A stretch of 64,000 nucleotides of DNA from contig JAIUPH010000002.1 in assembly GCA_020161065.1 (NCBI GenBank), positions 38,556 to 102,555 on the forward strand, written 5' to 3'. Numbering within the stretch: the first letter of the stretch is position 1; the number at the start of each line of letters is the position of its first letter. Below are positions 30,353 through 63,282 of the stretch, piece by piece. The notes below the pieces were generated by a model. The model saw only the letters and a list, made by a program, of their open reading frames with translations, searched no databases and had not been told where the DNA came from. Made by a program: the position numbers and the translations under genes. This DNA is from Pseudomonadota bacterium (GTDB lineage Bacteria; Pseudomonadota; Gammaproteobacteria; Burkholderiales; Burkholderiaceae_C).

Positions 30353-31624
30353 TCAGCCCTTGGCCAACGACAGCAAGGCGTCGCAAGCGCGGGCGATCGC
30401 CGCCGGGCCCGATTCGTCCGGCGCTCGCATGCGCTGGGCGATCGCAGCGGCGCGCTCGCGGATCATCGGGTCGCTGCATAACGCCTGAAGCGAGGCACCC
30501 GCGCGCTCGGCATCGTAGTGGGCCGGCAGCAGCTCGATGCCAACGCCCAGCCGCCCGACACGCGCCGCGTTGTCGAACTGGTCGTAGGCCACCGGGCGCA
30601 CGAGTTGCGGCACGCCGGCGCGCAAGGCCTGCGCCGTCGACCCGATGCCGCCATGGTGCACGAAGGCCGCGGCGCGCGGCAGCAGCAGGCCGTAGGGCGC
30701 ATAGCTCACGGCGCGCACGTCGGGCGGCAGATCGGCCGGCAACTGCTCCGGCACGTGCGACATCAGCAGCCCGCGCAAGCCGGCGCGCCGGCACGCGGCG
30801 ACCGAGCTTTCGAAGAAGGATCGCGCCGTGCGCGTGGCCGTGCCCGCCGAGAACACCACCGGCGCCGGCCCGGCGGCGAGAAAGGCATCGAGTTCGCGGT
30901 CGAGCCGGGGCGGTTCGTCGCCGCCTTCCGAGCCATCGACGCCGAAGAAGCCCGTCAGCCGCAGCCGCTCCGGCCAATCCGCCGCCGGCGGCGCGTACCA
31001 GGCCGGGAAGGCACCGATCAAGGCATCGGCACCGTCGGTCCAGCCCACCGCATGCGCGATGGCCGGCAGCCCCAGTTCGTGGCGCCAACGGTTCAGCGGC
31101 TTCGTGAAATGGCGGTCGTAGTAGCGGTCGAGGCCCCACCACCACAGCCGCTTGACGAAGCCCGGCGTGTCCGCGCCGATGCCGCGCGCCAGCAGCCGCG
31201 GCGGCGCGTCGTTCGAGCGCAGCGCGGCCGGCGCCAGGTGCACCGTGGCGCAAGGCACGCCCGCCCGTTCGCGCCAGACCATGGGCGCGAACAGCAACGG
31301 CGGCCCCGCGCTGACGACGGGCTCGGCGGGCTCTCGCAGCCGCTGCAGCGCCGCCAGATACGGCGGCGCCAGGGCCAGCAGCTCGCTGGCGATGCGAGCA
31401 AAGGCGAGCCGGGGGTCGTGCTCGACGGGCACGCTGAACATCGCGCGGTAGCCGTCGGCCGTGCCGACCTCGACGAAGTCGAGCCCCGCCGCCGCGGCGT
31501 ACGGCCGGAACACCGGATTGGCCAGCAGCACCGCGTGATGACCGCGCGCCCGGCATTCGCGGCCGAGGGCCACGAAAGGCAGCACGTCGCCATGGCTGCC
31601 GGCGGCGCAAAGCAGAACCTTCAT
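30353..31624 (-). CDS. GT1-family glycosyltransferase (UGT/MGT-like)
   Basis: A 423-residue GT-B enzyme. The N-terminal domain starts [29 protein letters not shown], the glycine-rich acceptor-side loop of sterol, rhamnosyl and macrolide glycosyltransferases. The C-terminal donor domain has [10 protein letters not shown] near 270 and [32 protein letters not shown] near 337-366, corresponding to the nucleotide-sugar signature of the family. It transfers a sugar to a small lipid or secondary metabolite; neither donor nor acceptor can be told from sequence. The ATG overlaps the stop of a small repeat-containing reading frame as ATGA. The GC content of this gene is already lower than its left-hand neighbours. 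Confidence 0.9.
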   Translation of the reverse strand: [423 protein letters not shown]

Positions 31625-31773
31625 GCGCGCGCGTCGGAGAAGAAGGCCCGCTCGACCGCATCCCTTAGCGGCCCGGATCCCCGAGGCCCAGGGGGCAGGC
31701 GGTCGCTGCTGTCGTTGCTGTCGCTGCTGTCGCTGCTGTCCCTGCTGTCCTTGTCGAATGGAACCTTGCTCAT
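31621..31773 (-). CDS. Possible small acidic Ser/Asp-repeat peptide
   Basis: A 50-codon frame beginning ATG at 31773 and ending with TGA that overlaps the ATG of the glycosyltransferase. The product opens SKVPFDKD and then carries a Ser-Ser-Asp repeat from a 9-bp minisatellite. The ATGA overlap with the next gene and the smooth acidic composition favour translation; the lack of a ribosome site and the repeat itself count against it. It could act only as a coupling leader for the glycosyltransferase. Confidence 0.3.
   Translation of the reverse strand: MSKVPFDKDSRDSSDSSDSNDSSDRLPPGPRGSGPLRDAVERAFFSDARA
31703..31747. repeat. 9-bp minisatellite, five units
   Basis: Five tandem copies of TCGCTGCTG with single-base variants. 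On the minus strand they encode Ser-Ser-Asp-type triplets in the possible small peptide upstream of the glycosyltransferase. The unit length keeps the reading frame when copies are gained or lost. Confidence 0.8.
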
Positions 31774-31871: not shown

Positions 31872-32222
31872 GTGCCCGATTCGCTCCGCCACCTCACGCT
31901 GCAACTGAGCCGCTTCGCGCAGGAGCGCGACTGGGAGCAATTCCACTCGCCCAAGAACCTCGCGTCTGCGCTGGTCGTCGAAGCTGGCGAATTGCTGGAG
32001 CATTTTCAATGGCTCACCGAAACGCAGAGCCGCGAGCTGCCAACCGACAAGCGCGATGCCATCGCCGCTGAACTCGCGGACGTGCTGCTGTACCTCGTAC
32101 AGCTGGCCGGTGCACTGGGCATCGATCCCATCCAGGCGGCGCAGCGCAAGCTGGCGGCGAACGCCCTGAAGTACCCCGTCGATCGGGCGCGAGGCACGAG
32201 CAAGAAGTACAACGAGCTCTGA
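31872..32222 (+). CDS. MazG-like nucleotide pyrophosphohydrolase
   Basis: A 116-residue all-alpha NTP pyrophosphohydrolase of the short MazG/dCTPase type. The start of the domain is SLRHLTLQLSRFAQERDWEQFHSPKNLA, and the metal-binding acidic helices are EAGELLEHFQW (about 34-44) and KRDAIAAELADVLLYL (about 60-75), giving the ExxE...ExxD signature. Such enzymes cut (d)NTPs to the monophosphate and pyrophosphate. GTG 31872 is picked because the domain begins immediately after it. The helicase-like gene starts 25 bases downstream in the same direction, so the two form an operon. Base composition is lower in GC than the flanking core genes, suggesting acquisition. Confidence 0.88.
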   Translation: MPDSLRHLTLQLSRFAQERDWEQFHSPKNLASALVVEAGELLEHFQWLTETQSRELPTDKRDAIAAELADVLLYLVQLAGALGIDPIQAAQRKLAANALKYPVDRARGTSKKYNEL

Positions 32223-32247
32223 CCACCGTGGCGGGGGGGCCGCGAAG

Positions 32248-34683
32248 TTGATCATCTACCAGGCCACGAAGGCGCAGTTTCTCGACCACGCGCTGCGCGA
32301 CGACATCGAAGACATCGTGTCGCGGCAGTTCGTCAGCGTCACCGGCCACACGGTCGGACGATCGGAGATGCATGCCTGGAAGCACTCGCTGTTGGAAATG
32401 GCCAAGGTGCTGCAGGACGAAGAGATCCCGCCTTCGGCCGGCGTGGGCATCGAATACCAGCTACCGCAAACCGCCAAGCGCATCGACTTCGTCATCACCG
32501 GCGAAGACGCCCAGGCCCGACCCAGCGTCATCATCGTCGAGCTGAAGCAGTGGTCGGAATCGCGCCACAGCGACAAGGATGCCATCGTCTGGGCCCGCCG
32601 CGGCGGCCGCGCGGCGGAGACCGAAGGCCCGCACCCGTCATACCAAGCCTGGTCGTACGCCGCGCTGCTGCAGGACTTCAACGCCGCCGTTCAGGACGGC
32701 CAGATGGCGCTGCAGCCCTGCGCCTACCTGCACAACCACCCGCGCGATGGCGAGATCGACCATCCCGCCTACCGCGACCACATCGAACGGGCGCCGCTGT
32801 TCTTGAGGCGGGAGCGCGCCAAGCTGCAGGCATTCATTCGCCAGCACGTACGACACGGCGACCGAAAGGGCACGCTCTATGCCATCGAGAACGGCCGCAT
32901 CCGACCGTCGAAGATGCTGGCCGACAGCGTGGCCGGTCTGCTGCAGGGCAAGCCCGAGTTCGTGCTCATCGACGACCAGAAGGTCGTGTTCGAGACGATC
33001 CTGCAAATGGACCAACGCGCCGAACAGCGCAAGCAGGTCGTCATCGTGCAGGGCGGTCCCGGAACGGGCAAGTCGGTGCTGGCCGTCAATCTCGTCGGCG
33101 CGCTGCTGGCCCGCGGCCGCAATGTCCGCTACGTCTCCAAGAACGCTGCACCCCGCGCGGTGTACGAAGCCAAGCTGACCGGCAAGTTCACCAAGAGCCG
33201 CATCAGCAACCTGTTCAGCGGCTCGGGTGTCTTCGTGAACGTCGAGCCCGACGTCTACGACACGCTGATCGTCGACGAGGCGCACCGGCTCAACGAGAAG
33301 AGCGGCCTGTACCGCAACCTGGGTGACAACCAGGTGAAGGAGCTGATCCGAGCCGCCCGATGCACCGCGTTCTTCGTCGACGAGGATCAGCGAGTGACGC
33401 TGCTGGACATCGGCAGCGTGGATCAGCTGCGCGATCAGGCCAGTGCAGCAGGGGCGGAAGTGACCGAACTGCAGCTGTCGTCGCAGTTTCGGTGCAACGG
33501 CTCGGACGGCTACCTGGCGTGGCTGGACGACGTGCTGGCCATCCGGTCGACCGCGAACACGACGCTGGACACCCGAGCGTTCGACTTCAGGGTGTTTGAC
33601 AACCCGGCCGAATTGCATGCGCTGGTCGAGCTGAAGAACCGCGCGAACAACCGATCGCGAATGGTTGCCGGCTACTGCTGGGCTTGGTCGAGCAAGCGCG
33701 ACCCGGACGCGTGGGACATCGAACTGCCCGGGTTCGGCTATCGGCGCCGCTGGAATCTGGACAAGGACGGCAGCCTGTGGATCGTGGCACCGGGCTCGGT
33801 GGATCAGGTCGGATGCATCCACACGTGCCAGGGGCTCGAGTTGGACTACGTCGGCGTCATCATCGGCCCGGACTTGGTGTACCGGGACGGACGCGTGCAG
33901 ACGGACGCAACCCAGCGCGCGAGCTCCGACCAGTCCGTCAAGGGCATCAAGCGGATGTTGCGCGACCACCCGGCCAACGCCAAGGCTCTGGCCGACCGGG
34001 TCGTCAAGAACACCTACCGGACGCTGATGACGCGCGGCATGAAGGGGTGCTACGTGTACTGCACCGACTCCGCCTTGGCCGCCTACCTGCGCACGCGGTT
34101 GACGGTCCGCGACGATGCGAAGCCGCGGGTGAGTCGACCCGACGTCCAGCCTGCTGCCGAGCGGCCCAGGGCAAACGTCGTGCCGCTGCACCGAGTCACA
34201 CGGCAGGAAAGAGAGGCGGGCGTCGCCGCAGCGCCCTTGGTCGACCTGCGGTTTGCGGCTGGCGCGTTCTCGAACTTCCAGGCCTTCGAGCAGGACAGCG
34301 CCGACTGGGTCGCCCTTCCGGATTGGGTGCGACCACAGCCGGGACTGTTCATCGCGCAGGTTGTCGGCGAATCGATGAACCGACGCATACCCAACGGCGC
34401 TTGGTGCCTTTTTCGGTTGCATCCCACCGGTACGCGCGAAGGCAAGGTCGTCGTCGCCGAGCATCGCAGCATCGAAGATCCCGACCTCGGCGGGTGCTAC
34501 ACCGTGAAGCTGTACTCAAGCGAGAAGGTGGCGTCCGACGAAGGCGGATGGCGGCATCGGCGGATTGCCCTGATCCCTGATTCGGATCGCCCGGGCTTCG
34601 AGCCGATCGTGTTTCTCGACGCCGAGGACGCGCAGGAGTTATCGATCGTTGCCGAGTTGCTGCTCGTCATGCCGTCTGCATAG
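32248..34683 (+). CDS. Nuclease-like / DUF2075 helicase / S24-peptidase fusion
   Basis: An 811-residue three-part protein. Residues 1-215 look like a PD-(D/E)xK-type domain: RIDFV with Asp80 and VELKQW with Glu98 and Lys100. Residues about 260-615 are a DUF2075 (Schlafen-like superfamily 1) ATPase: Walker A GGPGTGKS at 269-276, Walker B LIVDEAHR with Asp343-Glu344, the SSQFRC motif near 411, and HTCQGLELDYVGVI near 525. A linker leads to a LexA/UmuD-type S24 domain with VGESM (Ser709) and YTVK (Lys754), the expected catalytic pair, and an Ala-Gly pair at 671-672 at the distance of the usual self-cleavage site. The start is TTG, fitting the family opening MIIYQATK. It is paired with the MazG-like gene. 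A role in phage defence or DNA-damage response is inferred. Confidence 0.85.
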   Translation: MIIYQATKAQFLDHALRDDIEDIVSRQFVSVTGHTVGRSEMHAWKHSLLEMAKVLQDEEIPPSAGVGIEYQLPQTAKRIDFVITGEDAQARPSVIIVELKQWSESRHSDKDAIVWARRGGRAAETEGPHPSYQAWSYAALLQDFNAAVQDGQMALQPCAYLHNHPRDGEIDHPAYRDHIERAPLFLRRERAKLQAFIRQHVRHGDRKGTLYAIENGRIRPSKMLADSVAGLLQGKPEFVLIDDQKVVFETILQMDQRAEQRKQVVIVQGGPGTGKSVLAVNLVGALLARGRNVRYVSKNAAPRAVYEAKLTGKFTKSRISNLFSGSGVFVNVEPDVYDTLIVDEAHRLNEKSGLYRNLGDNQVKELIRAARCTAFFVDEDQRVTLLDIGSVDQLRDQASAAGAEVTELQLSSQFRCNGSDGYLAWLDDVLAIRSTANTTLDTRAFDFRVFDNPAELHALVELKNRANNRSRMVAGYCWAWSSKRDPDAWDIELPGFGYRRRWNLDKDGSLWIVAPGSVDQVGCIHTCQGLELDYVGVIIGPDLVYRDGRVQTDATQRASSDQSVKGIKRMLRDHPANAKALADRVVKNTYRTLMTRGMKGCYVYCTDSALAAYLRTRLTVRDDAKPRVSRPDVQPAAERPRANVVPLHRVTRQEREAGVAAAPLVDLRFAAGAFSNFQAFEQDSADWVALPDWVRPQPGLFIAQVVGESMNRRIPNGAWCLFRLHPTGTREGKVVVAEHRSIEDPDLGGCYTVKLYSSEKVASDEGGWRHRRIALIPDSDRPGFEPIVFLDAEDAQELSIVAELLLVMPSA

Positions 34684-35328: not shown

Positions 35329-35404
35329 TGGTGGCCTGGGGCGGAATCGAACCACCGACACGCGGATTTTCAATCCGCTGCTCTACCAACTGAGCTACCA
35401 GGCC
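35329..35404 (-). tRNA. tRNA-Phe (GAA)
   Basis: The 76-base minus-strand sequence folds as a full cloverleaf with the CCA end encoded. The acceptor stem is GGCCTGG/CCAGGCC, the D arm contains AGCTCAGTTGGTAGAGC, and the anticodon stem GCGGA/TCCGC holds the 7-base loop TTGAAAA with anticodon GAA. The T arm has GGTTCGATTCC. It reads phenylalanine codons. It lies between the lower-GC accessory stretch and the NtrX-like gene. Confidence 0.97.
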
Positions 35405-62203: not shown

Positions 62204-62216
62204 CTTTGATGATAAT
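62189..62216 (+). promoter_or_regulatory. recA promoter
   Basis: A -35-like TGTACA (62189-62194, four of six consensus bases) and a -10-like GATAAT (62211-62216) are 16 bases apart. The -35 part lies inside the SOS box. Confidence 0.6.
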
Positions 62217-62238
62217 CGCGGCCATGAAGGAGAAGCCC

Positions 62239-63262
<1,024 letters not shown>

Positions 63263-63282
<20 letters not shown>

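What the first reader, a model, noticed from the sequence alone, without database searches (positions are those of the whole stretch)
31872..34683. MazG-like enzyme paired with a nuclease-like/DUF2075 helicase/S24 fusion: candidate defence module
Seen: two adjacent same-strand genes, 25 bases apart, less GC-rich than the core genes on both sides, near tRNA-Phe. Known: MazG-type enzymes hydrolyse nucleotides, DUF2075 is a Schlafen-like SF1 ATPase, PD-(D/E)xK folds cut nucleic acid, S24 domains self-cleave or sense RecA filaments. Inference: the pair could sense DNA damage or phage replication and act on both DNA/RNA and the nucleotide pool. I am not aware of a described system with exactly this set.
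Basis: partly seen in the sequence, partly recalled or inferred. Interest (0 to 1): 0.78.

Follow-up and report, generated by a model that had tools for sequence, protein, structure and literature searches.

The report
Nuclease-helicase defence pair with self-cleaving cap
Two neighbouring genes, one for a nucleotide-destroying enzyme and one for a DNA-cutting motor protein with a tail resembling the self-cutting bacterial protein LexA, form a mobile pair seen in many bacteria and some archaea; it probably fights viruses and may switch itself off or on when the cell's DNA is damaged.

Summary
The two ORFs are real, 25 bases apart and clearly less GC-rich than their surroundings (65.4% against 73.0%). 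The pairing is not chance: of 89 distinct relatives whose flank could be read, 70 have the MazG-like gene directly beside the helicase gene, across at least seven phyla by record title, and on archaeal and Bacillota plasmids and a cyanophage. No other neighbour recurs nearly as often. In its genus the helicase is patchy: 9 of 60 genomes match, against 55 of 60 for the flanking ntrY.

The MazG partner is closest to dCTP pyrophosphatase 1. The large protein is a PD-(D/E)xK-like nuclease, a Schlafen-group-3 helicase and a LexA-type S24 domain. Among 60 relatives Ser709 is kept in 60, Lys754 in 59 and the scissile Gly in 59. In three genomes a GIY-YIG-like domain replaces the nuclease.

The same S24 domain also caps two Type III Res-like proteins and one Type I HsdR-like protein. 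It looks like a portable self-cleaving switch on restriction-type nuclease-helicases. I favour a built-in off switch; activation is the close rival. Defence itself is inferred. My literature searches found no description of the pair.

The parts
31872..32222 (+). MazG-like gene, dCTP pyrophosphatase 1-like (116 aa)
   Evidence: MazG-like PF12643 7.4e-17; the profile of 45 relatives best matches dCTP pyrophosphatase 1 in the PDB, E 9e-36; E37, E40, E67 and D70 kept in 45 of 45
32248..34683 (+). nuclease / SLFN-g3 helicase / S24 fusion gene (811 aa, TTG start)
   Evidence: AlphaFold2 model mean pLDDT 85.2, pTM 0.72
32248..32952 (+). N-terminal PD-(D/E)xK-like nuclease domain (about residues 1-235)
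   Evidence: D80, E98, K100 and Q101 in 60 of 60; NERD below cut-off; isolated-domain model pLDDT 92.5; best Foldseek hits are nucleases but weak, E 0.02 and above
33031..34068 (+). Schlafen group 3 helicase domain (residues 262-607)
   Evidence: PF09848 7.6e-103; Walker A lysine K275 and DEAH residues D343, E344, H346 in 60 of 60; structural matches RecD, DSH9, RecD2, SLFN11
34210..34680 (+). C-terminal LexA-type S24 domain (about residues 655-811)
   Evidence: Peptidase_S24 above cut-off; profile of 40 relatives matches LexA structures, best E 0.003
34258..34263 (+). predicted scissile bond Ala671-Gly672
   Evidence: Position 671 is Ala in 51, Cys in 8, Val in 1; Gly672 in 59 of 60; Ala670 in 60 of 60; aligned with the AAG of LexA
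34372..34374 (+). catalytic Ser709 codon
   Evidence: 60 of 60; also kept in the GIY-YIG, Res and HsdR fusions aligned
34507..34509 (+). catalytic Lys754 codon
   Evidence: 59 of 60
35329..35404 (-). tRNA-Phe beside which the pair lies (context, not part of the module)
   Evidence: tRNA-Phe follows ntrX in 16 of 16 ntrX loci examined, and in one of them (L131) a second pair also lies beyond it

Best explanation
A mobile two-gene anti-phage (or anti-plasmid) module. The large protein is a nuclease-helicase effector that loads on and degrades foreign nucleic acid, most likely DNA. The MazG-like partner hydrolyses dCTP or 5-modified dCTP, starving phage replication or removing the modified nucleotides with which phages protect their DNA. 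The C-terminal LexA-type S24 domain is a safety cap: when RecA filaments form on damaged host DNA, the cap cuts the protein between Ala671 and Gly672. This leaves a 671-residue nuclease-helicase ending in hydrophobic-Ala-Ala, a ClpXP-type degron as on cleaved LexA (recalled), so the effector is destroyed: a built-in form of restriction alleviation. Shown here: gene pairing, domain make-up, conservation of all four active sites, exchange of the nuclease module, portability of the S24 cap onto Type I and Type III restriction subunits. Inferred: defence, substrates, RecA dependence, cleavage itself, and the sign of the switch (off favoured over on, about 55 to 45 if cleavage is real).
For: Pairing: 70 of 89 distinct relatives with readable flank have MazG adjacent on the same strand; 7 of 7 other genomes in an even phylum sample have it beside a copy; gene order is reversed in several Halomonas-type loci. 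Patchiness: 11 of 250 family and 9 of 60 genus genomes against 55 of 60 for ntrY. Mobile carriers: archaeal, Bacteroidota and Bacillota plasmids and a cyanophage. Neighbours: 105 PADLOC families for 140 near genes, 7 for 124 random genes. Active sites kept. Nuclease swap to a GIY-YIG-like domain in three genomes with MazG still upstream. Type I restriction is known to need DNA-damage-linked ClpXP destruction of HsdR (PMC11109961, passages). Sister clades lack S24 altogether, so the cap is not needed for basic function.
Against: No phenotype exists. MazG relatives are common without the helicase (92 of 250 family genomes), so MazG may be a housekeeping gene recruited next to it; 19 of 89 relatives lack it nearby. 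The window's own flanks are core-looking genes. Farther genes (over 6.5 kb) also match 54 PADLOC families, so the gradient is not steep, and the random control comes from Pseudomonadota only. Nuclease domain: no PDB profile hit, Foldseek E 0.02 and above, NERD below cut-off. Degron idea: 8 of 60 have Cys and 1 Val at the last position, and the Res-like L219 lacks the Gly of the site. In the one well-studied case restriction alleviation did not need the SOS response. No LexA box upstream of the pair.
Confidence: 0.5

Rival explanations
1. Same module, opposite sign: the S24 domain keeps the nuclease-helicase latent and RecA-triggered cleavage activates it, in the manner of UmuD, so that phage replication or DNA damage launches degradation and nucleotide depletion, possibly as abortive infection.
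For: Same anatomy and conservation. The residues around the site (Ala/Cys-Gly-x-Phe-Ser) resemble those of UmuD and phage repressors as I recall them; UmuD is activated by cleavage (recalled). DNA-replicating phages make single-stranded DNA.
Against: Whole clades work without the cap, so it is not needed to hold the effector silent. The cap also sits on HsdR and Res, enzymes that must act at once on entry and already tell self from non-self by methylation. The residues left on the N-terminal fragment fit a degron in 51 of 60.
Confidence: 0.35
2. A DNA-repair or nucleotide-sanitation module: MazG cleans damaged or modified dCTP and the nuclease-helicase processes damaged DNA, with S24 linking it to the SOS state. 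Not defence.
For: Relatives of MazG and dCTP pyrophosphatase are house-cleaning enzymes (PMC10014863, search listing; PMC10742078, passages). A MutT gene stands close by in the Priestia plasmid locus. A SOS-type domain is present.
Against: Patchy distribution, plasmids and phage carriers, swapped nuclease domain, restriction and abortive-infection genes nearby, and the cap's presence on HsdR and Res.
Confidence: 0.12
3. An unrelated neighbourhood: two accessory genes that travel together by chance near a tRNA hotspot.
For: MazG is common alone; 19 of 89 relatives lack it nearby; tRNA genes lie near several copies.
Against: Adjacency in 70 of 89 relatives in many phyla, both gene orders, also with the GIY-YIG-like version; correlated divergence of the two proteins, r 0.62 over 65 pairs against a largest permuted value of 0.20 in 1000, though shared ancestry alone could give part of this.
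Confidence: 0.03

Closest known systems
Schlafen (SLFN) proteins, group 3, for example SLFN11
   Same: Same helicase domain family (PF09848); SLFN11 is among the best structural matches (rank 4, E 5.7e-11)
   Different: No Schlafen core domain (SLFN_AlbA_2) in the Pfam scan; a PD-(D/E)xK-like or GIY-YIG-like domain stands in its place
LexA / UmuD / phage repressor family (peptidase S24)
   Same: Pfam S24 above cut-off, Ser-Lys pair and Ala/Cys-Gly site conserved, profile match to LexA structures
   Different: No DNA-binding repressor domain; fused behind a nuclease-helicase and restriction subunits
dCTP pyrophosphatase 1 (DCTPP1, RS21-C6)
   Same: Best structural relative by sequence, E 9e-36, aligned over nearly the whole protein with the metal-binding acidic residues
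   Different: Bacterial gene tied to a nuclease-helicase; substrate unknown
Nuclease-helicase defence systems such as Nhi and AbiO (PADLOC), Gabija, Hachiman
   Same: Nuclease plus helicase architecture; PADLOC AbiO 1.1e-11 and Nhi 3e-11 match residues 237-417; candidate PDC-S41 1.9e-16 matches residues 402-605
   Different: Matches cover only part of the helicase; PADLOC has no match to the MazG partner (0 families); Gabija and Hachiman are named from recall
ClpXP restriction alleviation of Type I enzymes (EcoKI)
   Same: Damage-linked proteolytic removal of a restriction motor to protect the host (PMC11109961, passages)
   Different: There HsdR has no LexA-like cap and the process did not need SOS; here the protease would be built in

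Membership tests
Schlafen group 3 helicases (PF09848) | SLFN-g3 helicase domain with Walker A and B | tested here: met
   344.9 bits, cut-off 24; K275 and D343/E344 invariant in 60 of 60
Schlafen proteins in the strict sense | Schlafen core (SLFN_AlbA_2) RNase domain | tested here: not met
   Absent from the 25 best Pfam families shown for the protein at E up to 1 (27 found); the N-terminal part alone matches only NERD
Peptidase S24 / LexA-type self-cleaving domain | Ser-Lys catalytic pair | tested here: met
   Ser709 60 of 60, Lys754 59 of 60
Peptidase S24 / LexA-type self-cleaving domain | Ala/Cys-Gly scissile bond upstream of the Ser | tested here: met
   Position 671 Ala 51, Cys 8, Val 1; Gly672 59 of 60; aligned with the LexA site
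Peptidase S24 / LexA-type self-cleaving domain | RecA-filament-stimulated self-cleavage | not testable with these tools
   Needs biochemistry
LexA repressor | N-terminal DNA-binding helix-turn-helix | tested here: not met
   None in the Pfam listing of the 811-residue protein
MazG / DCTPP1-like pyrophosphohydrolases | Acidic metal-binding motif (EExxE...ExxD type) | tested here: met
   E37, E40, E67, D70 in 45 of 45; PF12643 above cut-off
MazG / DCTPP1-like pyrophosphohydrolases | Hydrolysis of dCTP or 5-modified dCTP | not testable with these tools
   Inferred from nearest structure only
PD-(D/E)xK nucleases / NERD | D...ExK catalytic residues | tested here: met
   D80, E98, K100 in 60 of 60 and also in the 62-sequence set with S24-less relatives
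PD-(D/E)xK nucleases / NERD | Fold or family match above threshold | tested here: inconclusive
   NERD 16.9 to 19.2 bits, cut-off 22.1; Foldseek top six are restriction-type nucleases but E 0.02 to 0.18; no PDB profile hit
Nhi / AbiO defence systems | Match across the PADLOC profile | tested here: not met
   Only profile positions 176-331 of about 470 match
Anti-phage defence system | Protection against phage | not testable with these tools
   Comparative evidence only

The most novel reading that the evidence does not exclude
A portable LexA-type self-cleaving cap is fused to several unrelated restriction-type nuclease-helicases (SLFN-g3 with PD-(D/E)xK-like or GIY-YIG-like nuclease, Type III Res, Type I HsdR) and makes their life span depend on RecA filaments: a built-in, gene-encoded restriction alleviation or SOS gate that has not been recognised, here combined with a dCTP-destroying partner in a new widespread defence system.
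Probability: 0.35. Interest if true: 0.9.

Novelty: new variant of a known kind. Interest (0 to 1): 0.74.

Why it matters
Bacteria must keep DNA-cutting defences from killing them when their own DNA breaks. A self-cleaving LexA-like tail shared by several unrelated restriction motors would be a direct, testable link between the SOS response and immunity, and the MazG pairing would add nucleotide depletion to a nuclease-helicase in one two-gene module found across bacteria and archaea. MazG-type domains have been listed as predicted but unvalidated defence domains (PMC13092281, passages); this pair gives a concrete system in which to test one.

Tried and rejected
Site-specific integration at tRNA-Phe: no second copy of the tRNA 3' end in the window, so tRNA association is positional only. 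SOS-box control: no box near the pair in the window; in 250 bases upstream of other loci, one-mismatch boxes occur in 2 of 67 S24-type and 3 of 24 S24-less loci, background about 0.06 per region, so no enrichment in the S24 type. Search for the helicase in E. coli by DNA with one relative (L068): no match (DNA-level only). Viral contigs: 6 distant helicase relatives without S24. The S24 subfamily outside the SLFN fusion is rare: in 250 family genomes all 6 matches are SLFN fusions; in 269 phylum genomes 5 of 6 are, the sixth a 236-residue repressor-like protein; plasmids gave 1 record, which is a SLFN fusion, and phages none. Of 3 viral contigs, two are the Res and HsdR fusions and the third is a 293-residue repressor-like protein; a repeat scan found the same two.

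Rows dropped before the 70-of-89 count: loci repeating one already used (L131, L136, L137, L138, L091), the split or fragmentary L012, L024, L050 and L099, every relative scoring under 500 bits or lacking its start in the profile (among them L010, L011, L044, L080, L095-L098, L115, L116, L118-L120, L175-L177), and two duplicate sequences (L001 = window, L171 = L026). Four rows had too little flank. L054 counts as lacking MazG although a borderline MazG (E 1e-5) lies 8 bases away.

PADLOC comparison: 140 of 397 near genes, 140 of 267 far genes and 124 of 160 random genes were scanned; the tallies count families, not proteins, and one protein can match several families.

Papers: DUF2075 with MazG, with nucleotide pyrophosphohydrolase, and with defense gave 0 papers each; DUF2075 alone 5, none on defence by title (listing only); MazG with defense island, helicase, nuclease and phage 0; S24, LexA, autoproteolysis, anti-phage and nuclease, at least four of five terms, 8 papers, none on such a fusion by title and abstract start. 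The library lacks most subscription papers and bioRxiv preprints. A preprint on bacterial Schlafens (10.1101/2025.07.24.666596) is known to me only from a reference list and is not held; Burroughs 2015 (PMC4678834) and Makarova 2011 (PMC3194920) are not held, so I could not check whether they list this pair.
Full report
Observation. Its GC is 65.4% against a mean of 73.0% in 545 same-size windows of the remaining sequence, none as low. Pfam gives MazG-like for the small protein, and SLFN-g3 helicase and Peptidase_S24 for the large one.

Is the pair real? The helicase protein is accessory: 11 of 250 genomes of the family, 9 of 60 of the genus at E up to 1e-30 (two of the nine are a 93-residue fragment and the Type III fusion described below), and 8 of 398 in an even sample of the phylum, own genome included each time. 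The flanking ntrY is in 55 of 60 genus genomes. In the family sample 8 of 11 genomes have MazG next to the helicase, and the other three have a MazG relative elsewhere in the genome. In the phylum sample the 7 genomes other than the own one all have MazG beside a copy; a second copy in one of them has none. On a tree of 95 rows (93 different), 70 of 89 distinct sequences with readable flanks have MazG adjacent. These rows are mostly the best 80 hits of one capped scan, so they lean towards close relatives of the window. By record title the MazG-adjacent ones include Proteobacteria of several classes, Nitrospira, Acidobacteriota, Kiritimatiellota, Bacteroidales, Verrucomicrobia and Lentisphaerae. 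In five Halomonas-type loci of that scan the MazG gene lies downstream instead of upstream. Among neighbours called in these loci, the MazG family recurs in 45 loci, the next family (short-chain dehydrogenases by eye) in 10. The converse does not hold: MazG relatives occur in 92 of 250 family genomes, many beside unrelated genes.

Mobile carriers. Of 23 plasmid records with a helicase relative I opened three: Halalkalicoccus (archaeon), Marivirga and Priestia plasmids; each has MazG directly upstream, though the Marivirga helicase is broken into pieces. In the Priestia plasmid the pair sits between an MrcB_N gene and hsdM/hsdS genes. Of 4 phage records with a relative I opened one, Microcystis phage Mwe-JY31, which carries MazG and the helicase side by side, preceded by a TPR protein.

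Neighbourhood. Genes within 3 kb of the helicase (140 of 397 scanned) match 105 PADLOC families at 1e-15, genes beyond 6.5 kb (140 of 267) match 54, and genes from 19 arbitrary 10-kb stretches of Pseudomonadota genomes (124 of 160) match 7. Near hits include AbiEi/AbiEii, Fic, Gabija-type helicase, HerA and a type IV restriction enzyme. Caveats: families are counted, not proteins; the far genes are also rich; the control differs in taxonomy.

The MazG partner. A profile of 45 partners matches dCTP pyrophosphatase 1 best (9e-36), and the four acidic residues are invariant. The mammalian enzyme is a specific 5-methyl-dCTP hydrolase according to a passage of PMC10742078.

The large protein. D80, E98, K100 and Q101 of the putative nuclease, the Walker A lysine and the DEAH box are invariant or nearly so in 60 relatives (the A of DEAH is S in one). 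The AlphaFold2 model is good (pLDDT 85.2; N-terminal domain alone 92.5). The whole model resembles RecD, DSH9, RecD2 and SLFN11. The N-terminal domain's best six Foldseek hits are restriction-type nucleases (Card1, EcoO109I twice, MspJI, BstEII, EndoMS; that these share the PD-(D/E)xK fold is recalled), but none reaches E 0.001, and ranks 7 and 8 are acetyltransferases.

A swapped nuclease. In three genomes of the phylum sample (G442, G338, G547) the helicase carries a different N-terminal domain, GIY-YIG-like. Pfam scores are 20.2 and 21.4 bits, just under the cut-off of 22.6, in two; the third has no listed match but is 66% identical to the first along its length. All three have MazG upstream, in one with a shortened reading frame, and two keep S24; the contig of the third ends before it. 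Exchange of the cutting domain under a constant partner and motor is what one expects of an effector.

The S24 cap. Ser709 is kept in 60 of 60, Lys754 in 59, Ala670 in 60, position 671 is Ala in 51, Cys in 8 and Val in 1, Gly672 is kept in 59, and position 669 is always hydrophobic. The profile matches only LexA chains in the PDB up to E 0.5 (13 sequences, best 0.003), with the AAG sites aligned. The domain has no DNA-binding partner domain in this protein. S24 is absent from 24 of 95 rows of the tree, in several clades; the tree needs at least 5 gains or losses. The tree program warned of long branches meeting for the most distant rows.

A portable cap. A weak hit in the same genus (G297) led to a 1113-residue Type III Res-like protein beside a DNA methylase gene with the same S24 domain at its C-terminus; two IMG/VR contigs gave a 1061-residue Res-like protein beside a Type III methylase and a 1214-residue HsdR-like protein, each with the S24 domain above Pfam's cut-off. 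The Ser, Lys and site are kept in two of the three; in L219 the Gly of the site is missing. This subfamily is otherwise nearly confined to the SLFN fusion.

How it most likely works. Step 1 (inferred from families): the nuclease-helicase attacks invading nucleic acid. Step 2 (inferred): MazG destroys dCTP or modified dCTP, which starves the phage or strips its protective base modification; the latter would make its DNA cuttable. Step 3 (inferred from conserved residues): RecA filaments trigger cleavage at Ala671-Gly672. Step 4 (inferred, weakest): the fragment ends hydrophobic-Ala-Ala, as in the ClpXP-sensitive LexA fragment (recalled), and is destroyed. I prefer this off switch because S24-less relatives exist, because the cap also sits on HsdR and Res, which need no activation, and because Type I enzymes are known to be removed by ClpXP after DNA damage (PMC11109961, passages). 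Against it: in that study the process did not need SOS, and 9 of 60 sites would not leave Ala-Ala. The on switch remains close.

Comparison with the known. It is not a Schlafen protein in the strict sense, not a LexA repressor, and not Nhi or AbiO, whose PADLOC profiles match only part of the helicase; a PADLOC candidate, PDC-S41, also matches part of it. MazG domains have been named as predicted, unvalidated defence domains by the DefensePredictor paper (PMC13092281, passages). I found no description of this pair or of LexA-capped restriction enzymes, within the searches listed under tried and rejected.

Verdict. Observation confirmed; interpretation partly supported and extended.

Noticed in passing
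window 62206-63279, + strand: A RecA gene (by eye from its sequence) lies about 28 kb from the pair; probably coincidence, but RecA is the expected trigger of a LexA-type domain.
   Followed up: no
window 30353-31624, - strand: The glycosyltransferase-like gene next to the pair is also accessory: 2 of 60 genus genomes have a match at 1e-60, own included, so the variable region may extend beyond the pair.
   Followed up: partly
window 31700-31760: A CTGTCG/CTGCTGTC-type simple repeat lies just upstream of the MazG gene; function unknown.
   Followed up: no
L131 and L136: In G255 a second pair lies 4.7 kb beyond the same ntrX-tRNA-Phe; in G195 the pair lies beside tRNA-Met.
   Followed up: partly
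L147 and L148: MazG relatives without the main helicase: one beside a Schlafen AlbA_2 protein, one beside a distant SLFN-g3 helicase; MazG may partner several Schlafen-type systems.
   Followed up: partly
L089 10001-13779: Rufibacter has two tandem nuclease-helicase genes, only distantly alike, behind one MazG.
   Followed up: no
L199 5001-8739: On a Marivirga plasmid the helicase beside MazG is broken into several open pieces, apparently of two copies; described only.
   Followed up: no
L005 3967-5121 and L085 7914-8936: Helicases lacking MazG are followed by other nuclease-type or defence-type genes: a NOV_C protein and an HNH_2 protein.
   Followed up: partly
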